The notes under the pieces: generated by a model
Databases searched by the model: none
Seen by the model: only the letters and a program-made list of their open reading frames with translations
What the model was told of the DNA's origin: nothing
Position numbers and translations under genes: made by a program
In this document: one piece after another, positions 12,012 to 23,935 of the stretch
Position numbering within the stretch: the first letter of the stretch is position 1
Layout of the letters: every line of letters begins with the position of its first letter
From: Cryobacterium sp. PH31-AA6
GTDB taxonomy: Bacteria > Actinomycetota > Actinomycetes > Actinomycetales > Microbacteriaceae
Length of the DNA: 64,000 nucleotides
Direction of reading: 5' to 3'
Assembly (NCBI RefSeq): GCF_030063195.1
Contig: NZ_JASISS010000002.1
Coordinates: 1 to 64,000, forward strand

Positions 12012-12698
12012 CTAGCAGCAGGTGTCCGCGTCGAGGGTTCGTTCGCCCGTGAGGGCGCTGATTGGCACCGCGCAGGTGTCGCCCTTCCAGGCTTCCAGGC
12101 CTTCCTTGAGGGCAAACCCGGCAATCACGAGGGCGGCGATCGAATCCGCCCACGCCCACCCCAGGAGGGAGTTGAGCAGGAGCCCGCCGAGGAGCGCCGC
12201 GGACAGGTAGCTGCAGACGAGGGTCTGTTTCGAGTCCGCCACGGCCGACGCTGATCCCAGCTCACGGCCGGTGCGACGTTCCAGCCAGCTCAGCACGGGC
12301 ATGATGGCGAGGCTGACGGCGGCCAGCGCGATCCCGACCGGGCTGTGTTCCGGCTCGCGAAGACCGAAGAGCGACAGGCCGGCATCGACGATCACGTAGG
12401 CGGCCAGGCCGAAGAAGGAGTACGCGACGACGCGCAGCGCGACTTTCTCGCGCTTCTCCGGGTCGGGAGCGGCGAATTGCCACGCGATCGCGGCCGCGGA
12501 GAGCACCTCGACGATGGAGTCGAGACCGAAGCCGATCAGCGCGGAGGACGATGCCACCGTGCCGGCGGCGAGGGCGATGATCGCCTCGATCACGTTGTAG
12601 GTGATGGTGATGGCGACGATGATCCGGATCCGGCGTTGCAGGATCAGTTTCCGGACGGGGTCGGCGACGCGCGCGACTCCATTCTTTGTTTCGGTCAT
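12012..12698 (-). CDS. CDF-type cation efflux transporter controlled by CmtR
   Basis: A 228-residue transporter with six membrane helices. Helix two carries SSSALIGFGLDSIVEVLSAA, where the aspartate and following residues match the cation site of diffusion-facilitator proteins; helix five has VCSYLSAALLGGLLL and WAWADSIAALVIAGFALKEG with the second acidic site. The extended cytoplasmic domain of large CDF proteins is missing, and the protein ends in DTCC, a possible soft-metal ligand. It overlaps the Cd/Pb-type CmtR gene by four bases, so export of cadmium, lead or zinc is likely. Confidence 0.85.
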   Translation of the reverse strand: MTETKNGVARVADPVRKLILQRRIRIIVAITITYNVIEAIIALAAGTVASSSALIGFGLDSIVEVLSAAAIAWQFAAPDPEKREKVALRVVAYSFFGLAAYVIVDAGLSLFGLREPEHSPVGIALAAVSLAIMPVLSWLERRTGRELGSASAVADSKQTLVCSYLSAALLGGLLLNSLLGWAWADSIAALVIAGFALKEGLEAWKGDTCAVPISALTGERTLDADTCC

Positions 12699-13048
12699 GC
12701 TCCGGTCCCGCAGCAGAGGGGCAGGTCGCAGTTCTCGTCGGAGCAGTGGACGCCGTCGTCGACGGCGAGCACGACGTCGATCAGCAGCGCCAGCGCTCGG
12801 GTCAGGTGCGGGTCGGCGATTTCGTACCGTGTCTGCCGACCCTCGGGTATGGCGGCTGCAATGCCGCAGCCGCGGAGGCAGCTCAAATGGTTCGACACGT
12901 TCGAGCGCGTGAGGTCGAGGTCACGCGCCAGCTGGGCCGGATAACCGGGCCGCTCCAACAGCGTGAGCAGGATCCTCGAGCGGGTCGGATCGGCCATCGC
13001 CCGGCCAAGCCGGTTCATGGCATCGAGACGCGAAGCAATGGTCAGCAT
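12695..13048 (-). CDS. cmtR: CmtR-like Cd(II)/Pb(II)-sensing ArsR repressor
   Basis: A 117-residue ArsR-family regulator. Cysteines fall at positions 57 and 61 (SCLRGCG, inside the recognition helix) and 102 (HCSDENC), the same numbering as the three cadmium/lead ligands of Mycobacterium tuberculosis CmtR. Extra cysteines occur at the C-terminus (NC, LCC). Binding metal at the DNA-recognition helix would release the operator. It is co-translated with the CDF exporter. A near-perfect palindrome (13053-13066) lies just upstream of the start. Confidence 0.9.
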   Translation of the reverse strand: MLTIASRLDAMNRLGRAMADPTRSRILLTLLERPGYPAQLARDLDLTRSNVSNHLSCLRGCGIAAAIPEGRQTRYEIADPHLTRALALLIDVVLAVDDGVHCSDENCDLPLCCGTGA

Positions 13049-13440: not shown

Positions 13441-14126
13441 GCCACCTCGGAAGACATTGGCAGGTTGGCCAGTCGCCATTCCAGCATCCCCTCGTTCAGT
13501 CGGACTGCTCGGCGGCCGCTCTGGCGCAGCAGGCTGATGGCCTCGTAGGCGAGCACGCAGTACGCGCCGCGGCAGTAGGCAACAATGTCACCGCTGGGCG
13601 GCAGCTCACCCAGCCGGTCGCTGAGCTCCTCGAGGGGGATGGAGAGGGCGCCGGGGATGTGCGCGGCCTGGTACTCCAGCCGTGGCCGGACATCCAGCAC
13701 GACGACCGTCCCTGCCGCGGCCCGGGCGAGCAGTTCCTCTCGGGTGATCTCCTCGCGCGCCTCTTCGCCGGCCGAGTCGGATGCATCGAGCCCGAGGTAT
13801 GCGATGCGTTTCGGTTCCACGTCGGACACGTGCGTCTGGGCGACGGTGCGGACCAGGCTGTAGAGCCGGGCGACGTCGTCCCCGGCGAGTTGGTAATGAA
13901 TCCGGGTGCCCTCACGCCGGGTGGTGACCAGACCCGCATGCTTGAGGGTTTGCAGGTGAGCCGATGCCGTGGTCAGGCCCAGGCCGGCCGAGTTGGCCAG
14001 CGATTCCACCGGACGTTCACCCTGTGCGAGCAGGTCGATCAGCTCGAGGCGCTTGCCGCTGCCGAGTGCCTTGCCGACGCGTGCAAACTGCTCGAACAGC
14101 GCCGACTTCTTCTCACGATCACCCAT
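13437..14126 (-). CDS. ArsR-family regulator fused to a rhodanese domain
   Basis: A 229-residue two-domain protein. Residues 1-100 form a winged helix (VESLANSAGLGLTTASAHLQ, then TRREGTRIHYQL). After a linker, residues 125-225 are a rhodanese with VVVLDVRPRLEYQAAHIPGA and the active-site loop CRGAYC (C185, C190). The rhodanese cysteine could take up sulfane sulfur and alter DNA binding. GGGAGGA precedes the start at 14126. It is divergent from the persulfide-dioxygenase-like gene, so the shared intergenic region is its probable target. Known architecture, signal inferred. Confidence 0.85.
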   Translation of the reverse strand: MGDREKKSALFEQFARVGKALGSGKRLELIDLLAQGERPVESLANSAGLGLTTASAHLQTLKHAGLVTTRREGTRIHYQLAGDDVARLYSLVRTVAQTHVSDVEPKRIAYLGLDASDSAGEEAREEITREELLARAAAGTVVVLDVRPRLEYQAAHIPGALSIPLEELSDRLGELPPSGDIVAYCRGAYCVLAYEAISLLRQSGRRAVRLNEGMLEWRLANLPMSSEVA

Positions 14127-14148
14127 GTGCGTCCTCCCGGTTTCCCTC

Positions 14149-14167
14149 ATACTAGTATCTTCTAGTA
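14149..14167. promoter_or_regulatory. Palindromic operator candidate between divergent sulfur genes
   Basis: ATACTAGTAT (14149-14158) is a perfect 10-bp palindrome and the half element CTAGTA recurs at 14162-14167. It lies 22 bp upstream of the ArsR-rhodanese start and about 80 bp before the persulfide-dioxygenase-like start, the expected place for a regulator controlling both directions. Confidence 0.5.
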
Positions 14168-14238
14168 ATCCATGGTTCTATGGAATATCGAGGGTTCCCG
14201 TTTCTGGCGGGGTCCTGCAATCTGAGGAGTGCGTACAC

Positions 14239-15612
14239 ATGGCGACGCTTCATCTTGTTCCCGTCATCGATGAGGGGCTGGGTAACTCCACCTACCTCCT
14301 GGACATCGGCCAGGGAAGGGCACTGGTGGTGGACCCGGAACGGGACCTGCGCGAAGTGCGCGCCGAGGCGAGGCGACTGGGACTGACCGTCGCGTACGCC
14401 GCGGAAACACACCTGCACGCGGACTTCATCTCCGGCGTGCGCGAACTTCAGCACGCCGAAGGAGCCACTGTGCTCGCGCCCGAGGCCGGCCCGCGCGAAT
14501 TCACCCACACAGTGCTGCACGACGGCGACACCCTGGACCTCGGTGACTTCACCCTGCAGGCGCTGGCGACACCCGGCCACTCACCCGAACACCTCGCCTA
14601 CCTGCTCCTCGACCAGGGGCGCATCGCCGGCGTTTTCACCGGTGGGTCGCTCATGGTCGGAACCGCCGGCCGCACCGACCTCGTGAGCCCGGACATGACC
14701 GTTCCGCTGGCCCGAGCCCAGTATCACTCACTGCACCGGCTGATGGACCTGCCCGACGACACCCCGGTCTGGCCCACCCACGGCGCCGGATCGTTCTGCT
14801 CCGCCGCAGCCGGTGGCGAACGGACAACCACAATCGGCCGCGAACGGGCGACCAACCCACTGCTCCAGGTCTCCGGCGAGGACGCCTTCGTCGATGCACT
14901 GCTCGGTTCACTCGGCACCTTCCCGGGCTACTTCCTGCGCCTCGGCGAGATCAACCGGCGGGGCCCCGTCGTGCTCGGGGCCACCCCGGCCTTGCCGACC
15001 CTGTCCGCCGACCGGGTGAAGGAGCTTCACGAGCAGGGTGCCCAAATCGTGGATTCCCGGCAGCCCGCGGACTTCGCCGCCGGGCACATCCCCGGATCCC
15101 TGTCCATAGCGCTGCGTCCGGTGTTCGCGACCTGGCTCGGCTGGCTGGCCGACCCAGAGCGGCCGGTCATCATCGTTCGCGGAGCTGACCAGGACCCCGA
15201 AGACATTGTCTGGGCGGCCGCGAAGGTGGGCTTCGACACCCTTGCTGGCGAACTCGACGGAGGCTTCCCGACGTGGAGGATCTCCAGAGCAACGGCGGCC
15301 GGGTCGCTGATCGAGGCCGGGGGAATGGTTTCGGGGGCCGAGGCATCCGCCGCCGTGATTGACATCCGCCAGGCCTCTGAGTTTGCGGCCGGCCACGTGG
15401 CCGCCGCGCGGAACGTCGAGCTCGGCGGTCTCGCCGAACTCCTCTCCGACCTGCCTGCCGGTCCTCTCGTCGTGATGTGCGGACACAGTGAGCGCGCCAT
15501 GAGCGCGGCCAGCATCCTCGAGCGAGCTGGCCGCACCAACGTCACCGTGCTCAACGGCGGTGCCGCCGACTGGGCACGCGAAGCCGGTCGCTCGCTGGAG
15601 ACCGGGCTGTGA
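14239..15612 (+). CDS. Persulfide-dioxygenase-like metallo-beta-lactamase protein with two rhodanese domains
   Basis: A 457-residue fusion. The N-terminal metallo-beta-lactamase domain has the iron-site motif ETHLHADFISG (H58, H60, D62), TPGHSPEHLAYL and WPTHGAGSFC, as in ETHE1-type persulfide dioxygenases. Two rhodanese domains follow (about 255-350 and 365-455). The second has an active cysteine loop (MCGHSERA). The first has VRGADQD, with arginine where cysteine is expected, so it is probably non-catalytic. The layout resembles CstB. Start chosen at 14239 after TGAGGAG. Oxidises or transfers persulfide sulfur in the cytoplasm; overlaps the next gene by four bases. Confidence 0.88.
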   Translation: MATLHLVPVIDEGLGNSTYLLDIGQGRALVVDPERDLREVRAEARRLGLTVAYAAETHLHADFISGVRELQHAEGATVLAPEAGPREFTHTVLHDGDTLDLGDFTLQALATPGHSPEHLAYLLLDQGRIAGVFTGGSLMVGTAGRTDLVSPDMTVPLARAQYHSLHRLMDLPDDTPVWPTHGAGSFCSAAAGGERTTTIGRERATNPLLQVSGEDAFVDALLGSLGTFPGYFLRLGEINRRGPVVLGATPALPTLSADRVKELHEQGAQIVDSRQPADFAAGHIPGSLSIALRPVFATWLGWLADPERPVIIVRGADQDPEDIVWAAAKVGFDTLAGELDGGFPTWRISRATAAGSLIEAGGMVSGAEASAAVIDIRQASEFAAGHVAAARNVELGGLAELLSDLPAGPLVVMCGHSERAMSAASILERAGRTNVTVLNGGAADWAREAGRSLETGL

Positions 15613-16883
15613 GCCGGACACCGAAAACTGGAGCTGATCGGAAGGGCGCGGACCGCGGCATCATCCTGGGCCTGAGGCAGAACCTTGCCCAGTTCATGCT
15701 GCTCGTGGCGATCAATGCACTGGTCGGCGGCACCCTCGGCCAGGAGCGCACGGTCTTGCCGCTGTTGGCGAACGAGGTCTTCCACCTCGACCGGTACACC
15801 GGCGCGCTGACCTTCATCCTCGCGTTCGGCCTCGCCAAGGCCGGCACCAACTACTTCGCCGGCACCCTCTCCGACCGCTACGGCCGCAAACCCGTGCTGA
15901 TCGCGGGCTGGCTGATCGCCATACCCGTACCGCTGCTGCTGATCGTGGGCCCGAGCTGGGGCTGGATCGTCGCCGCCAACGTGATTCTCGGGATCAGCCA
16001 GGGGCTGACCTGGTCCACCACCGTGGTCATGAAAATGGACCTCGTCGGCCCGAAGCAGCGGGGCCTCGCCATGGGCTTCAACGAGTCGGCCGGCTACCTG
16101 GGCGTCGCGGCCACGGCCCTGGCCACGGGCTACATCGCCGCCGAATACGGGCTGCGCCCCGGCCCGTTCCTGCTCGGCGCCGCCTTCATCGCCCTCGGCC
16201 TCGGACTGTCCGTGCTCTTCGTGCGCGAAACTCGCCACCACGCGAAGGTCGAAGCGGCCAACCATGTGTCCGTGCACGCGCACGCCGGCTCCCTCAGTGA
16301 CCGGCAAGTGTTCACCCTCACCAGTTTCCGGGACAAGTCGCTGTCCTCGATCAGCCAGGCCGGGATGGTCAACAACCTCAACGACGGCCTGGCCTGGGGC
16401 CTGTTCCCCATCCTGTTCGCTGCCGCCGGGCTCAGCATCGAACGCATCGGCATCCTGGCCGCAGTCTACCCGGCCGTCTGGGGAGCCGGCCAGCTGATCA
16501 CCGGCGGCCTCTCCGACCGGATCGGCCGTAAATGGCTGATCGTCGGTGGCATGCTCGTGCAGGCCGTCGCCCTGGGCATGGTCGCTGCCGGGAACAGCTT
16601 CGGGATCTGGCTGGCCGCCGCCATGCTGCTCGGCGCCGGCACCGCCATGGTCTACCCGACGTTGCTCGCCGCGATCAGCGACGTCGCGCACCCCGAATGG
16701 CGAGCCCGCTCGGTGGGCGCCTACCGGCTGTGGCGCGACGGCGGCTTCGCCGTCGGCGCCCTGCTCTCCGGGCTGCTCGCCGACGCCTTCGGCATCCCGA
16801 CCGCGGTGGCCGCGGTTGCGGCGTTGACCGCGGCATCCGGGCTCGTCGTTGCCGTGCGCATGCGCGGAGACGACCACCCCTGA
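15609..16883 (+). CDS. MFS transporter in the sulfur-stress operon
   Basis: A 424-residue major facilitator. The loop motif between helices two and three is clear (GTLSDRYGRKPVLIAGW), and its counterpart in the second half is GGLSDRIGRKWLIVGG. The GTG start overlaps the stop of the persulfide-dioxygenase-like gene (GTGA), so the two are co-translated. Substrate is not readable; export of a sulfur species or of the stressor that triggers the operon would fit. A strong hairpin follows directly after its stop codon. Confidence 0.85.
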   Translation: MSRTPKTGADRKGADRGIILGLRQNLAQFMLLVAINALVGGTLGQERTVLPLLANEVFHLDRYTGALTFILAFGLAKAGTNYFAGTLSDRYGRKPVLIAGWLIAIPVPLLLIVGPSWGWIVAANVILGISQGLTWSTTVVMKMDLVGPKQRGLAMGFNESAGYLGVAATALATGYIAAEYGLRPGPFLLGAAFIALGLGLSVLFVRETRHHAKVEAANHVSVHAHAGSLSDRQVFTLTSFRDKSLSSISQAGMVNNLNDGLAWGLFPILFAAAGLSIERIGILAAVYPAVWGAGQLITGGLSDRIGRKWLIVGGMLVQAVALGMVAAGNSFGIWLAAAMLLGAGTAMVYPTLLAAISDVAHPEWRARSVGAYRLWRDGGFAVGALLSGLLADAFGIPTAVAAVAALTAASGLVVAVRMRGDDHP

Positions 16884-17079: not shown

Positions 17080-17700
17080 CTATTCTGCGGGGCCGGACTG
17101 TTGTTGAGGTGCTCGGTGTGAGGCGCGCGTACCCAGGAAGGGAGGGGGCGGCGATGCTGGGACTGCGGGGATTCCCTGTTTGAAGATGGGTTCGAGGAGG
17201 CGCAGTGCTTTGTCGGGGAGCCCGTCTCCCGGGAAGAAGTCATTCAGCAATTCCTCGGCCGCATTGAGTTCACGAACATCGCAGATTGCGAGCAGGTTGG
17301 CGATGTCCTGCACGTCGCGTCCCGGGCGCGATGCGTTGAGCTTCATGGCTAGCAGCGCCCGGGGCGAGGCAACTTCCACTGTGATGTCCTCGTTCGCGTA
17401 GAGGACCTCCCAGCCAGGGTCAGCCCCATAGGACGGTAGAAACATCGTGGCGTTGCTGTTGAGCCAGTCCTGTGGCCAGCCGTTCTCGTCGGCGACTTCA
17501 ACTGCGGCCTTCAGGATTGGTTGCTCTGGCTGCAGGTGAGCATCGACATCTGCGGTTGTTCGGCGGTCGAAGTACCGGAGAGCGAGTGCAGCGCCTCCAA
17601 CTATTCGGATGCCTGCAGGCTGGCCGGCGGCGCGGAGCTTGGTGATGACCGCGTTGATGCCGCGGATGAGGTCATCGCGGTTGAGTTGATCTCCTGGCAT
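17080..17700 (-). CDS. DUF6036/AbiEii-like nucleotidyltransferase (toxin of a TA-like pair)
   Basis: A 206-residue protein starting MPGDQLNRDDLIRGINAVIT. The motif RIVGGAALALRYFDRRTTAD has the GGxAL...R.T.D pattern of nucleotidyltransferase-fold proteins such as AbiEii and DUF6036, where the aspartates hold the metal. The later SPRALLAMKLNASRPGRDVQD is the conserved second half. It directly follows an XRE regulator with a one-base stop/start overlap (TAATG). This fits a type IV-like toxin-antitoxin or phage-defence pair. The proline-rich tail (from about residue 182) looks disordered and may be strain-specific. Confidence 0.75.
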   Translation of the reverse strand: MPGDQLNRDDLIRGINAVITKLRAAGQPAGIRIVGGAALALRYFDRRTTADVDAHLQPEQPILKAAVEVADENGWPQDWLNSNATMFLPSYGADPGWEVLYANEDITVEVASPRALLAMKLNASRPGRDVQDIANLLAICDVRELNAAEELLNDFFPGDGLPDKALRLLEPIFKQGIPAVPASPPPPFLGTRASHRAPQQQSGPAE

Positions 17701-18275
17701 TAAATGCTTTCCAGGGTTTCGGCTTCAATCAGGATGCCGCGCCGGAGGAACTCGACGGGGACTCGCGCCGGGTCTGCCGGGATCTCGTAGTCGCTTGTGC
17801 GCGGTGCCCACGGGCTGTCGTGGTGTCCTACTTGCCTCGTGACCCAATCCGGAACGGGCAGGGCTTCTGCCTTGAGCCGGTATTCGCAAAGAGCGGCGAT
17901 CGCGGCGTCCCATCGTTCGGACCCGGTGGGGGACGGCTCGCTCAACGCGAGGCCGACTCGTGTGGCTCCGCGTTCTGAAGCGAGGTTGTCGGCGAGTTGG
18001 AGGAATCGCCGGAATGCCGAGACTTCATCTGATCTGGTGATTGCTTCGCCGATCTCGGATGCGATGCGGGCTGCATCGCTGCGTACCGTCGGGACTGTCA
18101 CAATCGTGTGGCGGGTCGCTCGCAACAGTGCCTCGAGTGTGGCGACTGTCGGTTCGCGCTTGCCGTGTTCAATCAGGGAGAGCGACGAGCCGGCGATCCC
18201 TGAGCGAAGTGCGAGCTGGCTTTGCGTGAGTCCGCTCGCAGCCCTGGCGGAACGAGCAAGAACACCTGCTGTCAT
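17700..18275 (-). CDS. XRE helix-turn-helix antitoxin-like regulator
   Basis: About 191 residues. The N-terminal Cro/CI helix-turn-helix is clear (SGLTQSQLALRSGIAGSSLS followed by LIEHGKREPTVATLEALLRA). The C-terminal 110 residues form an unidentified domain with WDAAIAALCEYRL and PDWVTRQVGH. I prefer the ATG at 18275, with AGGTGGTGA upstream, over a GTG at 18287. A perfect palindrome lies directly upstream. It is coupled to the nucleotidyltransferase, so it is likely both antitoxin and autorepressor. Confidence 0.75.
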   Translation of the reverse strand: MTAGVLARSARAASGLTQSQLALRSGIAGSSLSLIEHGKREPTVATLEALLRATRHTIVTVPTVRSDAARIASEIGEAITRSDEVSAFRRFLQLADNLASERGATRVGLALSEPSPTGSERWDAAIAALCEYRLKAEALPVPDWVTRQVGHHDSPWAPRTSDYEIPADPARVPVEFLRRGILIEAETLESI

Positions 18276-18287
18276 TTCAATCACCAC

Positions 18288-18307
18288 CTTTTACTAAGTA
18301 GTAAAAG
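18288..18307. promoter_or_regulatory. Perfect palindromic operator upstream of the XRE/DUF6036 pair
   Basis: CTTTTACTAAGTAGTAAAAG has 8-bp perfectly complementary arms around a 4-bp centre and is AT-rich in a GC-rich region. It sits 12 bp ahead of the regulator's start codon, where binding would block the promoter or translation start. The divergent resolvase begins about 40 bp to the right and may share it. Confidence 0.65.
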
Positions 18308-18346
18308 CATACCAGTCCCGATCCAATGAAGGGCTGGAGGATGTTG

Positions 18347-18916
18347 ATGGCCCTGCAGGTCGAGGTGAATTGTGCCGTCATGATTGAACTACTGATCGGG
18401 TACGCGCGCGTATCCACAAATGAGCAAGACCTCACCGCCCAACAAAACGCCTTGGAACGACTGGGCGTTAGATCGAACCTGATCTACACCGATCATGGAT
18501 TGACAGGAACCAACCGTGCGAGGCCGGGACTACGAGAAGCGCTTGCTGCCTGCAGGAGCGGGGACACACTCGTGGTGGCCAAACTCGATCGTCTGGCCAG
18601 GTCGCTCCGCGATGCGAAAGACATCGTCGATGAGCTGACCGCCAAGGGAGTGAAGCTCAGCATCGGCGGCTCCGTGCACGACCCGAATGACCCAGTCGGC
18701 CGGCTCCTTTTCAACGTCCTCGCCATGGTCGCGGAATTCGAGTCAGATCTCATCCGCTCTCGAACGAAAGAGGGCATGCAGGTGGCGAAAGCGAAGGGCC
18801 GGTTGCGCGGCAAGCCACCGAAGCTCTCCGTGGCGCAGCAGAAGCACTTGATGGAGGTCTACAACGCTGGTACTCACACAACTGCCGAGCTTGCTGAGCT
18901 GTTCAATGTCGCCTGA
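18347..18916 (+). pseudogene. Serine resolvase/invertase, C-terminus replaced by an IS end
   Basis: The catalytic domain is intact: IGYARVSTNEQDLTAQQNAL with the nucleophilic serine, KLDRLARSLRDAKDIVDEL and GRLLFNVLAMVAEFESDLIR, then RTKEGMQVAKAKGR. The C-terminal helix-turn-helix starts (TTAELAELFNVA) but ends before the second helix, about 15-20 residues short. The stop TGA is the first three bases of TGACGTGCCCC, which looks like an IS3-family terminal repeat. DNA binding is therefore probably lost. The start is uncertain: 18347 has GGAGG six bases ahead, and 18380 is the ATG closest to family starts. Confidence 0.75.
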
Positions 18917-19218: not shown

Positions 19219-19875
19219 TCACGGCCCGGTCACCGTGGGCCCGGCGGGCCGCATCGCCAGGAGGGTGGCCGCGAACCGGCTGTGAGGGGCGACGAGGGCG
19301 ACAAGATCCGCGTCGGCGATCGTATCCACATCGGTGAGCATCGGGAGTTGACGCACGCGCAGTCCGTCGTTTCGTAGCCTGGCGAGCTGGCTTGCGCCGG
19401 TGTGGGCGACGGACATGGGGACACCGCGGATCAGGTCGCCCCGGGAGCGTCCCGGGCGGGGCAGGCCGAGGGCGAGTGCCCAGAATCCGCCGTCGTGCGC
19501 TGGGCCGAACCAGGCATCCGTCGTGTTGTCCCAGTCGGTGAAGACCGGACCAAGCAGGGTCGCGCTCAGCTGTGGGGTGTCCATGCCGACGAGGAGTGCC
19601 GGCTCCGTGAGGGAGTCGAAGATGGCGGCCAGGCGTTCGTCGAGTCCACCGGACACCTGAGGCGCGATCTCGAATGCCGCCGCCGTGACGGGGGGCTCGA
19701 CGCCGTCGAAGGCGAGGATACGGCGGGTCGCCGGGAGGGCCAGCGCGGCGGCGAGGGTGTCGTCAAGACTCGCGGCGGCGAGCTCTGCCGCCTGTTCGTA
19801 GGAGAGCGCCGGGTACAGCCGGGTCTTGACCTTCCCGGGCAGGCACGCCTTCGCCATGACAACAATCGCGGTCAT
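19219..19875 (-). CDS. DUF2064/TIGR04282-type glycosyltransferase A-fold protein
   Basis: A 218-residue nucleotidyl/glycosyl-transferase-fold protein: MTAIVVMAKACLPGKVKTRL is the CofC-like opening, and LLVGMDTPQLSATLL holds the metal-binding aspartate, with WFGPAHDGGFWALAL after it. The family is annotated as rSAM/selenodomain-associated transferase 1 and is often found with radical SAM enzymes, including arsenosugar clusters. Here too a radical SAM gene lies 105 bp upstream. The 3' end borders transposase debris, so the last residues may have been altered. Substrate unknown. Confidence 0.8.
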   Translation of the reverse strand: MTAIVVMAKACLPGKVKTRLYPALSYEQAAELAAASLDDTLAAALALPATRRILAFDGVEPPVTAAAFEIAPQVSGGLDERLAAIFDSLTEPALLVGMDTPQLSATLLGPVFTDWDNTTDAWFGPAHDGGFWALALGLPRPGRSRGDLIRGVPMSVAHTGASQLARLRNDGLRVRQLPMLTDVDTIADADLVALVAPHSRFAATLLAMRPAGPTVTGP

Positions 19876-19940
19876 TTCCGCGCCTCGCGAATGCGCAGGC
19901 CCTCGTCGTCGGCCGCGCTAAGGAACACCTCGGGCGTCAC
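19872..19940 (-). other. Short open stretch, possible remnant between the radical SAM and DUF2064 genes
   Basis: A GTG-initiated frame of 22 codons (VTPEVFLSAADDEGLRIREA, then RK) ends in a TGA overlapping the DUF2064 ATG by four bases, the same coupling style as the rest of the operon. An in-frame stop lies just upstream. It may be a leftover C-terminus of a deleted gene or only a coupling leader. I cannot assign it to a family. Confidence 0.3.
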
Positions 19941-19979
19941 TGGCGTTCACGCCCGCGCCCGGCCGTCGAACGAGTGAGG

Positions 19980-21026
19980 CTAGGCACAGGGGAACCACTC
20001 TGCGGCGCGCTCAGCGGCGCGGCGGTGTGCGACGAACCGGCGGGTGATCTCTGCGATCGCGTCGGCGAGGGGGAAGATATCGCGCGTCACGAACTGGTCG
20101 TCGTGATCGGCCGCGACCGGATGCCAGTACACACCGTCGGCGGTGATCGTCACCTCGGGGATGAGCGAGTCGACCGTGAGCTCGATGCCGGAGTCGGCGA
20201 CACCGCGGTGCGCAAGCGCGCGAATGACCTGATCCTCACGCGAGATTCCGAGGGTGTCGAGGAACGCGTGGAACGGGTCGAGCTCGTGAATCTGGTCGGC
20301 GGGGAGGGTGGCCGCGACCTTCACGCGGAACCCCTCGTCGTGTGCGATCCGGATGCCGTCGACGGCCTTGGCCCATGACCCGGTTCCGCGGTGACTGTCG
20401 TGGATTTCCGGAGTGGCGGAGTCGACGCTTATCTGGAGAGTGAGCCGGGAGCGATCCATTCGGCGCAGGCGCTCGAGTCGTGCGGCGCGGAACAACATTC
20501 CGTTTGTGAGTAGCGTGGTCGGGAGTTCGTGGGTGCAGGAGTTCACGAGAGCATCGAGGTCGTTCAAGAGGAACGGTTCGCCTCCAGTGAGGATGAGTTC
20601 ACCGACGCCCGCGGCGGCAGCCTCGCTCGCGATCTGCTGGAGCCGCTCGGCTCCGATCGCTCGCCGTTCCGCCTTCGGCGATGAGCGAACGCAGCAGTAG
20701 TCGCACGCGAGGTTGCAATCGAAGTTCGTGTAGACCCACACCCGCGAACCGGGTAGTTGGGCGGGGTCGAGCCCCGCGAGCGGGTCGGGGGAACGCCCGT
20801 GCAGAACGGTCACCGTCAATCCCTCGACCGACACGATCTCGTTGCCGCTCGAGGCGCACCACGCCGCGACAAGGTCAAGTGATGCTAGTCGGTGCGCCGG
20901 GACGAGTCCAACGGTTGCTGTTCCGCCGGTCGGCACTCGCCCGATACATTCGATGAGGTCGAGTACGACGCCCATCGCCGAGGGTTCGGCTACCGACGGG
21001 CTCACGGGTGTTCTCGAGGTCACCAT
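19980..21026 (-). CDS. Radical SAM enzyme with an N-terminal TusA-like region
   Basis: A 348-residue protein. The radical SAM cluster motif is CNLACDYCC (CxxxCxxC), followed by ELILTGGEPFLLNDLDALV (the GGEP motif) and TLQISVDSATPEIHD, so an active 4Fe-4S/SAM core is expected. The first about 80 residues (VLDLIECIGRVP, then LVAAWCASSGNEIVSVE) resemble a TusA fold but lack the CPxP cysteine. There is no SPASM cysteine array; a lone C-terminal cysteine remains. The start at 21026 overlaps the upstream gene by seven bases. Product unknown; a sulfur-linked modification is my guess. Confidence 0.8.
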   Translation of the reverse strand: MVTSRTPVSPSVAEPSAMGVVLDLIECIGRVPTGGTATVGLVPAHRLASLDLVAAWCASSGNEIVSVEGLTVTVLHGRSPDPLAGLDPAQLPGSRVWVYTNFDCNLACDYCCVRSSPKAERRAIGAERLQQIASEAAAAGVGELILTGGEPFLLNDLDALVNSCTHELPTTLLTNGMLFRAARLERLRRMDRSRLTLQISVDSATPEIHDSHRGTGSWAKAVDGIRIAHDEGFRVKVAATLPADQIHELDPFHAFLDTLGISREDQVIRALAHRGVADSGIELTVDSLIPEVTITADGVYWHPVAADHDDQFVTRDIFPLADAIAEITRRFVAHRRAAERAAEWFPCA

Positions 21027-21832
21027 CGCGCGGCAATTCCTTGCTCGCTGACGGCTGCGACGAGGGACGAGTAGCCCTCTAGCCTCGGTGGCACCCAGGC
21101 TTGTAGGCCCTCCATCTCCATGATCGGCCGATGCTGCGGATTCTCCCAGTCCATCGCGCGCAGATTCGCGACCCATGGATCCGCGCGGTCGTTCGCGAGC
21201 GACGGCATCGCGGTGAAGTTGCAGTGGCTGTACTCGGGCGAGGTCCAGAACGATTCGAACGCGCCAGGCAGCAACTCGCCACGTCCGATCGCCTGCCACG
21301 TGTTGATGCCGATCGCGGCGGCATCCGCTCGATCGTCGAGCACTGCGCGCAGAGCGTCCAGCTCACTCCGCCCGGTGTCGCCGTGTTTTCCCACGTCACT
21401 GTCGATGCGGGTGAGATTCACGTCCTCCTCACTCAGGCCGGCCTCGTGCAGGAAGTGAACCGGGAGGATCGCAGCCTGAGCCGAATCGCGCGATCCAAGA
21501 ACGAGGCGGCGCCCCCGAAGGCTCTCGAGCGATGTGAATCCGCTCCCCGCTCGGGCGACGAACACGGTCGTGAAAATGAGATCCGTGTCGCGCGACGCGA
21601 GTGCACGGCAGGCACCCTCGGTTTGGGCGACGGTGCGCACCCAGGCAAGATTGGTGTTCCAGGCGAGGTCGAGCGAGCCGGAGATGAGAGCATCAACCTG
21701 TCTGCCGTAGTTGGAGAACAGCAGGAAATCGATCGGTGTCGAGGTCTCGGCGAAGTAGTCCCGCATTCCTTCCCAGATCGGCACGACGTTGGGCGAGTAA
21801 GCGACAGCGCCGATGACCATTGGCTCGGTCAT
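21020..21832 (-). CDS. PhnD/SsuA-like substrate-binding-fold protein without signal peptide
   Basis: A 270-residue protein starting MTEPMVIGAVAYSPNVVPIW. The fold signs of phosphonate/taurine-type binding proteins are present: DYFAETSTPIDFLLFSNYGR, ISGSLDLAWNTNLAWV, SLRGRRLVLGSRDSAQAAIL and DDRADAAAIGINTWQ. Typical ABC binding proteins carry a lipoprotein signal; here the domain begins at residue 5, so it should be cytoplasmic. No permease or ATPase is nearby. It may act as an enzyme, as Thi5 or MqnA relatives do, or as a ligand carrier. It overlaps the flavoprotein gene by four bases. Confidence 0.8.
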   Translation of the reverse strand: MTEPMVIGAVAYSPNVVPIWEGMRDYFAETSTPIDFLLFSNYGRQVDALISGSLDLAWNTNLAWVRTVAQTEGACRALASRDTDLIFTTVFVARAGSGFTSLESLRGRRLVLGSRDSAQAAILPVHFLHEAGLSEEDVNLTRIDSDVGKHGDTGRSELDALRAVLDDRADAAAIGINTWQAIGRGELLPGAFESFWTSPEYSHCNFTAMPSLANDRADPWVANLRAMDWENPQHRPIMEMEGLQAWVPPRLEGYSSLVAAVSEQGIAARW

Positions 21833-23004
21833 GCCACGGCCCCGGCCGTCTCGGTCTGCCTGGCCACGGTGGCGGGCTTCGGCGCATCGAAGAGGGGTCT
21901 GCCGGTGATCGCCCGACCGTAGAACTCGTAGAGCACGTCGGATGTCGGGGCCATCACGTGTCCCGCTCGTGCGTCGCGGAAGTAGCGGTCGATCTGCAGG
22001 TGCTCGGAGAACGCAGCTCCACCGCACACGCGCATGGCGATGTCCGTGACGCGCAGTGCGGCTTCGTTTGACGATGCTTTGCTGCCGAGTACAAAGAGAG
22101 GGGTGTCGTCTTCGGGATCGGCGACTTTTCCCGCGGCCGCGTCGAGATATGCGCTCGCGTTGGCCAGATCGATCGACATTTTCGCGAGTTGCGCCCGGAT
22201 GGTCGGCAATGACGACAGGCTCTGATCGAGGTGCTCGAGCCTCGCACCCATCGTGTGGCGCACCGCGGCATCGGCTGCCGCACGGCTGAGGCCGATCGAC
22301 ACGGCTGAGTTGCCCAAGTTAAACCACGGCAGCACGTGGCCCATCATCAGGTCGAACCCGCCACCCGCGGCGCCCAGACGAAATTCCTCGGTCGTGTCTA
22401 CCTCGACGGTCATCGGGCTCGAGGAGTTTCCACGGAATCCCATCCCGCTCCAGGGGCGATCGATCGTGAGGCCGGTCGATCCGGCGGGGATAGCGAAGAG
22501 GTCGACGGTCTCTGCATCCGGCGTGCCCGTGGAGATGACGTAGACGTCAGCATGACCAGCCGACGTGACCCAGCTCTTCTTCGCGGAGACCCGGATTCCC
22601 GCTGCTATCGTGGTCGCTCGCGAAACCGGCGCCCAGAAGTGTGAACGCGAACCCGCTTCGGAGAACGCCAGTGAGGCGAGCGAGCGGCCACTCGCGAGAT
22701 CGCCGAGCAGCCCAGGCATCCCTTCGGGCGGCGCGGCGGCCACCGGCATCGCGGCACTCACGTGCATCAGGTAAATCATCGCGGTCGATCCGCAGGCGCC
22801 GGCGAGCGCACTGGCCACTCGCACAAGCTCCCGTGGTCCCTGGCCCAGCCCGCCGACCTCCGTCGGAAGAGTCAGCCCGAGCAGTCCCGATGAACGCAGC
22901 GCGGCGACCGCTTCCTCGGGAAATCGTCCAGCCTTATCCACGTCGTGGGCATGCTCACGGGCGATCTCCAATACGGGATCCAGTAGTTCGACAGCGTCGG
23001 TCAC
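21829..23004 (-). CDS. Acyl-CoA-dehydrogenase-fold flavoprotein
   Basis: A 391-residue protein of the acyl-CoA dehydrogenase superfamily: FPEEAVAALRSSGLLGLTLP, SLASLAFSEAGSRSHFWAPV, KKSWVTSAGHADVYVIS, and a late RVCGGAAFSEHLQIDRYFRD. The usual catalytic glutamate region (YEGT-type) is replaced by MAPTSDVLYEF. This favours the flavin monooxygenase subgroup (DszC/SfnC-like) over a true dehydrogenase. Coupled by four-base overlaps to the membrane gene upstream and the binding-fold gene downstream. Possible role: oxygenating a sulfur- or nitrogen-containing small molecule. Confident on fold, not on reaction. Confidence 0.82.
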   Translation of the reverse strand: MTDAVELLDPVLEIAREHAHDVDKAGRFPEEAVAALRSSGLLGLTLPTEVGGLGQGPRELVRVASALAGACGSTAMIYLMHVSAAMPVAAAPPEGMPGLLGDLASGRSLASLAFSEAGSRSHFWAPVSRATTIAAGIRVSAKKSWVTSAGHADVYVISTGTPDAETVDLFAIPAGSTGLTIDRPWSGMGFRGNSSSPMTVEVDTTEEFRLGAAGGGFDLMMGHVLPWFNLGNSAVSIGLSRAAADAAVRHTMGARLEHLDQSLSSLPTIRAQLAKMSIDLANASAYLDAAAGKVADPEDDTPLFVLGSKASSNEAALRVTDIAMRVCGGAAFSEHLQIDRYFRDARAGHVMAPTSDVLYEFYGRAITGRPLFDAPKPATVARQTETAGAVA

Positions 23005-23402
23005 GGTCTGCCTTTCGTCGGTTCGTGCGGCTGGGCTGGGGGAGTCGGGGAGAGCGCGAGGGTGAGGAGCCCGATGCCGAGGCCGCCGACGACCGCCATG
23101 GCCGAGGCATCACCGCCGAGGGGCCGGATCGAGAGAGCGAGACCCACGAGCTGGGTGAAAGCGGCACCGATGAGAAGGGCTCCGGCGAGTGTCCGTAGCA
23201 GCCGTCGCCGGACGATGCCGCTGAAGATCGAGAGAACGCCGGCGGCCACGAGGAGGGCTGCACCGACCGGCCCGATGTTCACGAACCGAAACTCCGTGGG
23301 GAGCAGGGCGCCGAACACGAAACCGGCAAACGCGATCGCGGCGGCCCCGATCAGTATCGCCGAGCGGTCGCGCTCACTCGATCTGCCGGCTGCGCCTGTC
23401 AC
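23001..23402 (-). CDS. Four-helix membrane protein, unknown
   Basis: About 133 residues. I choose GTG at 23402 because GAGG lies five bases ahead and it overlaps the DoxD-like stop by four bases (GTGA), matching the operon's style; an ATG at 23435 is the alternative. Four hydrophobic segments (starting ILIGAAAIAFAGFVFGALLP, ending MAVVGGLGIGLLTLAL). No catalytic residues are apparent and I do not recognise a family. It might be the membrane partner of the DoxD-like protein. Confidence 0.65.
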   Translation of the reverse strand: MTGAAGRSSERDRSAILIGAAAIAFAGFVFGALLPTEFRFVNIGPVGAALLVAAGVLSIFSGIVRRRLLRTLAGALLIGAAFTQLVGLALSIRPLGGDASAMAVVGGLGIGLLTLALSPTPPAQPHEPTKGRP

Positions 23403-23935
23403 GAGAGCCTCACCATGAGCTGTGACAGCTGACATGATGACGCCGACCAGGTCTCGCGCAGTACCCCATCGACTCCGTAACTACGCCCCGCGGCCGTCGC
23501 GAAGATCGCGAGGTGCGCGAGCGCCATCAGGTAGTACGACCACTGCCACTCGTGTGGCGCGAATAGTACCGAGAGGGTGATCGCCACTGTCTGGCCCAGG
23601 CCGACGACGGCCCAGAACCGAGTGGCGAGACCGATGAGTAGAAAGGCGCCCAGTCCGCCCTCGACAAGAAGCGTGAACCATCCGAAGATCTCGATATTCG
23701 GCAGAACGACCCCATCGACGAACGCCGAATAGGGGGCGAAAACCGGGAATTCGACCGCCTTGTTCGCCCAAAAATACAGGCCGTCGTTGTTCACCCGGCC
23801 GAAGTCCGGGGGGACCTTCCACGCGACATTCTGTATCCACATGAGCGCGACGCCGCACCGGAGCACAGCGATCATGACCGCGGACGCGCGGGTCACACCC
23901 TGTGCATCAACCAGTGGACTAACCGATCCGGCCAT
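23399..23935 (-). CDS. DoxD/DoxX-like membrane protein
   Basis: A 178-residue protein with four membrane helices. Hallmarks of the DoxD (thiosulfate:quinone oxidoreductase small subunit)/DoxX group are RCGVALMWIQNVAWKVPPDF near the start, the periplasmic FVDGVVLPNIEIFGWF, and VEGGLGAFLLIGLATRFWAV. GAGAGG lies ahead of the ATG. First gene of the six-gene leftward operon. Such proteins can link oxidation of sulfur compounds to quinones, but DoxX relatives also have other roles, so the assignment is tentative. Confidence 0.75.
   Translation of the reverse strand: MAGSVSPLVDAQGVTRASAVMIAVLRCGVALMWIQNVAWKVPPDFGRVNNDGLYFWANKAVEFPVFAPYSAFVDGVVLPNIEIFGWFTLLVEGGLGAFLLIGLATRFWAVVGLGQTVAITLSVLFAPHEWQWSYYLMALAHLAIFATAAGRSYGVDGVLRETWSASSCQLSQLMVRLS

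What the first reader, a model, noticed from the sequence alone, without database searches (positions are those of the whole stretch)
19219..23935. Coupled DoxD / ACAD-like / cytosolic PhnD-like / radical SAM / DUF2064 operon: candidate undescribed pathway
Six leftward genes, the first five joined by 4-7 base overlaps, combine proteins rarely seen together: a DoxD-like quinone-linked membrane protein, a small four-helix membrane protein, an acyl-CoA-dehydrogenase-fold protein that lacks the usual catalytic glutamate region, a phosphonate/sulfonate-binding fold with no export signal and no ABC partner, a radical SAM enzyme with a TusA-like N-terminus lacking CPxP, and a TIGR04282-type transferase. 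Known: TIGR04282 proteins associate with radical SAM enzymes, and DoxD and TusA folds with sulfur. Inference: a cytosolic pathway that oxidises or rebuilds a small sulfur-, selenium- or arsenic-containing molecule and feeds electrons to quinones.
Basis: partly seen in the sequence, partly recalled or inferred. Interest (0 to 1): 0.78.

Follow-up and report, generated by a model that had tools for sequence, protein, structure and literature searches.

The report
TB-like operon tied to methylthio sugar
A six-gene bacterial operon matches an uncharacterised tuberculosis gene set, and nearly every genome examined that carries this version also carries genes like those for the sulfur-bearing sugar on the tuberculosis surface glycan, which suggests they work together.

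Summary
The operon is real: five genes joined by 4, 4, 4 and 7 base overlaps, then DUF2064 after 104 bases. Genes 2-5 pass NCBI family cut-offs for M. tuberculosis Rv1678 (C-part), Rv1679/FadE16, Rv1680 and Rv1681/MoeX: named families without a demonstrated function in my searches. The set recurs widely (70 loci; ACAD-PBP-rSAM in order in 57). Two observations I found nowhere in print: (1) The third partner is swappable: a TusA-like domain is fused to radical SAM, to a diiron R2-like domain, or (one case) to a MetE-like methyltransferase; MetE-like genes without it also occur. (2) Of 42 radical-SAM-type genomes examined, 41 hold TIGR04282 and 41 a GT2 of the kind found in an MTX-type cluster, against TIGR04282 in 79 of 296 in the phylum. 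In L074 both sets form one run of genes; the own genome has the cluster on contig C29. Best reading: a sulfur/methyl-processing module that in Actinobacteria serves an MTX-type methylthiopentose pathway; the chemical step is unproven. Selenium and arsenic are not supported for this type; electron flow to quinones is untested. Structure prediction never ran.

The parts
23399..23935 (-). DoxD-like membrane protein, 178 aa; first gene
   Evidence: Pfam DoxD 33.6 bits (cut-off 22.7); NCBIfam TQO DoxD 25.5 bits (cut-off 300)
23001..23402 (-). small membrane protein, Rv1678 C-part family; starts at GTG 23402 (4-base overlap) or ATG 23435
   Evidence: NF049986 89.1 bits (cut-off 50); one frame with DoxD in L073
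21829..23004 (-). ACAD-fold flavoprotein, Rv1679/FadE16 family, catalytic Glu replaced (MAPT)
   Evidence: NF049984 650.5 bits (cut-off 600)
21020..21832 (-). cytosolic phosphonate-binding-fold protein, Rv1680 family; invariant WNTN, GKHGD and HCxF motifs in 27 aligned rows
   Evidence: NF049985 488.5 bits (cut-off 400)
19980..21026 (-). TusA-like N-domain + radical SAM, Rv1681/MoeX family
   Evidence: NF049973 528.3 bits (cut-off 380); Pfam Radical_SAM; N-domain
19219..19875 (-). DUF2064 / TIGR04282-like nucleotidyl- or glycosyltransferase; paralogue (69% identity) of the gene in the MTX-type cluster on contig C29
   Evidence: Pfam DUF2064 61.4 bits

Best explanation
A cytosolic sulfur/methyl-processing module. 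Its constant heart is an ACAD-fold flavoprotein without the dehydrogenase Glu plus a phosphonate-binding-fold protein that has no export signal and presumably holds or converts a small anionic substrate. A third enzyme docks through a TusA-like domain; here it is a radical SAM enzyme. DoxD plus the Rv1678-type protein form a membrane partner. In Actinobacteria this radical SAM type serves an MTX-type pathway (MTA phosphorylase, sugar epimerase, DUF2064, polyprenol-phosphate-sugar synthase, GT-C transferase), which in M. tuberculosis adds 5-methylthio-xylose to lipoarabinomannan. Shown: gene content, conservation, partner swap, co-occurrence and linkage. Inferred: that the module acts on the methylthio-pentose, its precursor, or the S-methyl unit; docking; the order of steps; the role of DoxD.
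For: Family membership. Recurrence. TIGR04282 in 41 of 42 radical-SAM-type genomes and 43 of 48 module genomes against 79 of 296; within the own taxonomic family 5 of 5 module genomes against 41 of 150 (Fisher p 0.0013). GT2 of the own cluster (taken as MtxS-like; not compared with Rv0539) matched in 42 of 48, on the same contig within 5 kb of TIGR04282 in 41 (read side by side). At least two of five MTX-type genes in the flanks of 16 of 52 loci of 15 kb or more. One continuous cluster in L074; about 11.6 kb apart in a Mycobacterium-like genome. Own genome: MTAP, epimerase, GT2, DUF2064, GT87 on C29. MtxS and MtxT as MTX enzymes: figure-legend passage of PMC8780516. MetE-like partners keep H-x-C, DEP and NPDCGF where the stretch is complete.
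Against: None of five non-actinobacterial genomes with diiron, MetE or no detected partner has the GT2 at E<=1e-25 (L060, L063, L067, L068, L072), so the module's older function is not MTX. The TIGR04282 tie is not confined to the radical SAM type: in the phylum sample 5 of 7 diiron-type genomes and G227, G042, G279 have it too. The module is not needed for making MTX if TIGR04282 marks that pathway: 36 of 41 TIGR04282 genomes in the own family lack the module. One radical-SAM-type genome (L034) lacks both marker genes. Whether Cryobacterium-like bacteria make a methylthio sugar is unknown. Shared ancestry inflates the counts. The window TIGR04282-like gene scores under cut-off.
Confidence: 0.43

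Rival explanations
1. Extracytoplasmic thiol/sulfoxide redox system: DoxD and the Rv1678-type protein with TlpA/CcdA/DsbF-type partners keep the surface methylthio sugar reduced; the cytosolic enzymes make a redox cofactor for it.
For: TlpA-like and/or CcdA-like genes near the module in L028, L046, L050, L053, L065, L069, directly behind rSAM in L069; in M. tuberculosis rv1676 (peroxiredoxin-like) and dsbF (rv1677) lie next to cmr (PMC5499769, passages).
Against: TlpA in 5 and CcdA in 6 of 70 loci; no DoxD match in the diiron-type stretches and in one of ten MetE-type ones (L082).
Confidence: 0.15
2. Selenium metabolism: the module handles a selenium compound.
For: SelD-SelA-SelB lie directly upstream of ACAD-PBP-TusA-diiron in L080. 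SelD in 10 of 10 diiron-type genomes and 10 of 11 (missing in G690); in 20 of 22 module genomes of the second phylum against 144 of 224 others (p 0.007).
Against: Own genome and G150, G199, G227 have no SelD; 17 of 42 radical-SAM-type genomes over cut-off against a base rate of 191 of 296; one adjacency only.
Confidence: 0.08
3. Cofactor-type pathway like futalosine menaquinone synthesis: a PBP-fold enzyme, a radical SAM enzyme that adenosylates, and a nucleoside phosphorylase removing adenine.
For: Same enzyme kinds: PBP-fold without signal, rSAM, MTAP in the linked cluster. The analogy with MqnA/MqnD, MqnE and MqnB is recalled.
Against: Diiron and MetE-like partners in the same place are not expected to adenosylate.
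Confidence: 0.12
4. Arsenosugar-like synthesis, as the TIGR04282 name suggests.
For: TIGR04282 name; an ArsM-like methyltransferase (74.7 bits, cut-off 510) in the L082 cluster.
Against: No ArsS among the 25 best of 80 hits of the window rSAM; TIGR04282 over cut-off in 5 of 48 module genomes. ArsM was not searched in the own genome.
Confidence: 0.05
5. Ordinary lipid oxidation (FadE16) with unrelated neighbours.
For: The annotation FadE16 in M. tuberculosis (family name).
Against: Catalytic Glu absent in the family; fixed gene order with PBP and rSAM and overlaps.
Confidence: 0.04

Closest known systems
M. tuberculosis Rv1678-Rv1681 (NCBIfam NF049986, NF049984, NF049985, NF049973)
   Same: Four families pass the curated cut-offs; in a Mycobacterium-like genome DoxD and the small membrane protein are one frame, as the name Rv1678_C implies
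   Different: Labels only, no demonstrated function found; window has DoxD separate and a DUF2064 paralogue behind rSAM; the M. tuberculosis genes themselves were not fetched
MTX (5-methylthio-xylose) pathway of lipoarabinomannan, MtxS/Rv0539 and MtxT/Rv0541c
   Same: Linked or co-occurring cluster of MTAP, epimerase, GT2, DUF2064 and GT-C-like gene
   Different: The module is optional and not one of the MTX genes named in what I read; the gene-by-gene match to Rv0535-Rv0541c is recalled, not tested
MesD/MesX folate-independent methionine synthase (PMC7857596, passages read)
   Same: MetE-type modules pair a MetE catalytic domain, without folate domain by length in L082, with a probable flavin partner
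   Different: Partners are ACAD-fold and PBP-fold, not DUF1852; methionine synthesis untested; window type has radical SAM instead
Futalosine pathway (recalled)
   Same: PBP-fold enzymes, radical SAM, nucleosidase
   Different: Partner swap; ACAD-fold and DoxD proteins
Phosphite/phosphonate-binding proteins (PDB 7s6g, 5lq5, PtxB)
   Same: Sequence match, 69.2 and 47.6 bits for the best two
   Different: No signal peptide by eye, no ABC gene among the six; PMC8562490 lists Rv1680 as putative phosphonate transporter component from a structural model (passage)

Membership tests
Rv1681 radical SAM family (NF049973) | curated score 380 bits | tested here: met
   528.3 bits
Rv1680 SBP-like family (NF049985) | curated score 400 bits | tested here: met
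   488.5 bits
Rv1679 ACAD family (NF049984) | curated score 600 bits | tested here: met
   650.5 bits
Rv1678 membrane family, C-part (NF049986) | curated score 50 bits | tested here: met
   89.1 bits
TIGR04282 arsenosugar-type transferase | curated score 134 bits | tested here: not met
   109.5 bits; Pfam DUF2064 met (61.4 over 25.8)
Canonical acyl-CoA dehydrogenase | catalytic Glu | tested here: not met
   Glu position is Ala in MAPT
TusA sulfurtransferase | CPxP cysteine | tested here: not met
   no such motif in the N-domain
TusA fold (domain only) | profile similarity | tested here: met
   rSAM N-domain to diiron N-domain 93.35%, E 2.6e-7, two controls under 0.2%; of three diiron proteins scanned, L068 passes Pfam TusA (37.1 over 28.6) and L060, L063 fall short (23.8, 23.3); no direct Pfam TusA hit for the window protein
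ABC solute-binding protein | export signal and transporter partner | tested here: not met
   sequence start by eye; no ABC gene among the six genes
Thiosulfate:quinone oxidoreductase DoxD (NF041179) | curated score 300 bits | tested here: not met
   25.5 bits
MTX biosynthesis | makes or transfers methylthio-xylose | not testable with these tools
   linkage only
Selenium utilisation | SelD in the genome | tested here: not met
   own genome 0 matches at E<=1e-20

The most novel reading that the evidence does not exclude
A new kind of thioether (S-methyl) processing machine: the ACAD-fold and binding-fold proteins present a methylthio substrate, and one of three unrelated catalysts, docking through the same TusA-like domain (radical SAM, diiron oxygenase, or zinc methyltransferase), removes or relocates the methyl group. 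The MetE form would be a further folate-independent methionine synthase; the radical SAM form was drafted once, in the ancestor of that branch, into making or remodelling surface methylthio sugars, including that of M. tuberculosis.
Probability: 0.17. Interest if true: 0.88.

Novelty: new variant of a known kind. Interest (0 to 1): 0.62.

Why it matters
Rv1681/MoeX is described as a urine marker of tuberculosis, unique to the M. tuberculosis complex (PMC4202705, passage; and its family is in fact spread over many genera), and MTX is described as a unique residue of lipoarabinomannan of that complex (PMC10675199, passage). A tie between the two would give an orphan operon a pathway, correct the labels MoeX, FadE16 and phosphonate transporter, and can be tested in harmless soil bacteria. 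The partner swap on a shared domain would be a clear case of catalyst replacement within one pathway.

Tried and rejected
Selenium: looked strong from the L080 SelD-SelA-SelB neighbourhood and from SelD in 20 of 21 diiron-type genomes (10 of 10, 10 of 11), but the base rates (191 of 296; 164 of 246) and its absence in the own genome made it unspecific. MTAP about 4.5 kb from the diiron module in L076 and L081, and nearby in L079, is one genus and not an operon (a LuxR-type gene and others lie between in L076), so I do not count it. No MTAP, GT2, DUF2064, epimerase or GT87 match lay in the stretches L113-L132 (3-14 kb each). The phylum search for PBP gave 57 of 296 at E<=0.001, many at low scores; I kept the 13 above 200 bits.

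Rows dropped: the PBP tree holds 94 of 107 loci with a PBP frame; 13 fell out through my motif and length filters (L062, L069, L072, L080, L113, L121-L128), so eight of ten MetE-type loci are not in it. In one search rSAM rows were chosen by a CxxxCxxC-type pattern and seven were dropped (L070, L013, L030, L031, L073, L045, L074), so conservation of that motif there proves nothing. The PBP alignment holds 60 rows that passed a motif filter, that holds 27 chosen loci. ACAD rows of 450 aa or more were left out. The genome-contig scan used exact peptide patterns of the window protein, so it favours near relatives; no record named Mycobacterium appeared. Searches were given the genomes of 48 of the 70 loci. 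L012 has only a broken rSAM stretch and is counted as non-rSAM.

Literature: ten searches gave no demonstrated function for Rv1678-Rv1681 and no link to MTX; one search listed 40 of 116 papers. The key MTX paper (Angala 2017) is not held, so MtxS/MtxT rest on a figure-legend passage of PMC8780516. Other papers were seen as passages only.

Full report
What is there. The window (contig C22 of a 3.68 Mb genome) holds six leftward genes at 23935-19219. With the second gene starting at GTG 23402 the overlaps are 4, 4, 4 and 7 bases; DUF2064 follows after 104 bases. Pfam and NCBIfam identify DoxD-like, Rv1678 C-part, Rv1679/FadE16, Rv1680, Rv1681/MoeX and DUF2064. Four of these pass curated NCBIfam cut-offs of families named after M. 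tuberculosis genes. The closest named relative by PBP identity is Cryobacterium algoritolerans (93%). So the operon is a member of a named gene set for which my searches found labels (MoeX, FadE16, putative phosphonate transporter component) but no demonstrated function.

Is it more than chance? A scan of genome contigs with the PBP-fold protein gave 70 loci. By BLAST in the fetched stretches, many cut short by contig ends, ACAD was found in 64 of 70, rSAM in 61, DoxD in 52 and the small membrane protein in 18. All of ACAD, PBP and rSAM were found in 57 of 70, in that order on one strand in 57 of 57; DoxD stands in front in 47 of the 49 that also have it. In a Mycobacterium-like genome (L073) DoxD and the small membrane protein form one frame.

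Proteins. The ACAD-fold protein has M-A-P-T where short-chain dehydrogenases have the catalytic Glu; MAP[T/V/S] stands in 93 of 94 aligned relatives. The PBP-fold protein lacks an export signal by eye and, over 27 chosen rows, shows an invariant set of residues, among them W-N-T-N, G-K-H-G-D and H-C-x-F; the nearest solved structures by sequence are phosphite/phosphonate-binding proteins. A C-terminal Cys-Ala stands in 52 of 55 aligned rSAM rows (rows chosen by their cluster motif).

A swappable third partner. In L060, L063 and L068 (Gemmataceae, Armatimonadota, Paenibacillus) no rSAM was found; instead there is a protein with a TusA-like N-domain (Pfam 37.1 bits in L068, under the 28.6 cut-off in L060 and L063) and a ferritin-like diiron domain related to R2 proteins and R2-like oxidases, all weakly. 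Seven actinobacterial genomes (L075-L081) have the same arrangement, and 11 of 20 stretches from a second phylum have the diiron homologue with a TusA-like start by eye. In L067 a TusA-like domain (26.3 bits, under the 28.6 cut-off) is fused to a MetE catalytic domain (123.7 bits); L082 and 8 of those 20 stretches have a MetE-like gene beside ACAD and PBP, without a TusA match in L082. One stretch (L113) shows no partner. Where complete, these MetE-like proteins keep H-x-C, DEP and NPDCGF, places of zinc and homocysteine binding in MetE (recalled). Profile comparison joins the N-domains: rSAM to diiron 93.35% (E 2.6e-7) with controls of 0.19 and 0.08%; MetE fusion to diiron 98.7% (E 2e-16), but to rSAM only 61.6% over 16 columns, so that last tie is indirect. 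In a tree of 94 PBP proteins the radical SAM type is one branch (69 rows, 66 rSAM and 3 without a detected partner, support 100/99) among diiron types (eight MetE-type rows were lost to my filters).

Link to a methylthio-sugar cluster. In 16 of 52 loci of at least 15 kb, two or more of MTAP, epimerase, DUF2064, GT2 and GT87 lie in the flanks, from Propionibacteriaceae, Micromonosporaceae, Glycomyces, Streptomyces, Phytoactinopolyspora, Microthrixaceae, Agromyces and a Dormibacterota MAG among others. In L074 the order is MTAP, then ACAD, PBP, rSAM, epimerase, GT2, DUF2064, GT87, DoxD, the last eight on one strand. In the Mycobacterium-like genome the cluster ends about 11.6 kb from the module. 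The own genome carries MTAP, epimerase, GT2, DUF2064 and GT87 on C29, and the window DUF2064 is 69% identical to the C29 copy, so it looks like a duplicate placed behind the module. TIGR04282 occurs in 43 of 48 module genomes examined: 41 of 42 of the radical SAM type and 2 of 6 others. The GT2 of the own cluster has a match in 42 of 48: 41 of 42 of the radical SAM type (missing in L034), L012, and none of the five non-actinobacterial genomes with diiron, MetE or no detected partner. Background for TIGR04282: 79 of 296 and 41 of 150 in the own family, where the module occurs in 5 of 150, all with TIGR04282. In the phylum sample 11 of 13 module genomes have it (by genus 9 of 10 against 52 of 199, p 2.6e-5); but these 11 include 5 of 7 diiron types and three others (G227, G042, G279), so TIGR04282 alone does not mark the radical SAM type; the GT2 search was not run on this sample. 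These p-values ignore shared ancestry.

What that cluster does. PMC8780516 (figure-legend passage) states that MtxT (Rv0541c) transfers methylthio-xylose to the mannoside caps of lipoarabinomannan and that MtxS (Rv0539) forms MTX-P-C50. That MTAP, an epimerase and a DUF2064 gene complete this cluster in M. tuberculosis (Rv0535-Rv0541c) is recalled; the GT2 here was not compared with Rv0539. Hence the name MTX-type; the product in Cryobacterium is unknown.

Most likely mechanism. The module is optional (36 of 41 TIGR04282 genomes in the own family lack it), but its radical SAM type was almost never seen without the cluster genes. So it most likely modifies, recycles or supplies the methylthio-pentose or its S-methyl unit. 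The three partner types have one chemistry in common that I can name: taking a methyl group off sulfur, by radical, by oxygenation, or by transfer to a thiol. This is inference.

Against it. The diiron type is not tied to the GT2 outside Actinobacteria, so the module arose for something else. SelD was found in 20 of 21 diiron-type genomes looked at and in 20 of 22 module genomes of the second phylum against 144 of 224 others (p 0.007), which leaves a possible selenium side for that type. No structure could be predicted.

Verdict. Observation confirmed; interpretation partly supported. The window operon is a member of named families; the partner swap and the MTX link did not appear in the searches named above.

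Noticed in passing
L080:8486-16990: SelD, SelA and SelB lie directly upstream, same strand, of ACAD, PBP and the TusA-diiron gene; NCBIfam scores over cut-off.
   Followed up: partly
L082:2923-11469: One run: MTAP, ArsM/UbiE-like methyltransferase, SPASM radical SAM, GT2, DUF2064, DoxD, ACAD, PBP, MetE-like.
   Followed up: partly
L068:5928-10804: An Rrf2-family regulator and a thioredoxin-reductase-like flavoprotein stand in front of the Paenibacillus TusA-diiron, ACAD and PBP genes.
   Followed up: no
L090 (G373, same genus as the window): A same-genus genome has a divergent copy of the module (PBP 60% identical) that groups with the Mycobacterium-like one in the tree (100/99), which suggests transfer.
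   Followed up: no
window 17080-18916: Beside the operon's 3' end: a nucleotidyltransferase-like and an HTH gene (toxin-antitoxin-like, by eye) and a resolvase-type recombinase; families not searched.
   Followed up: no
window 12012-13048, minus strand: A small ArsR-type regulator and a cation-efflux-like membrane protein, by eye, overlap by four bases (frames); families not searched.
   Followed up: no
window 13969-16883: A metallo-beta-lactamase/rhodanese-like fusion followed by an MFS transporter, read by eye, ending about 2.3 kb beyond the operon's end; families not searched.
   Followed up: no
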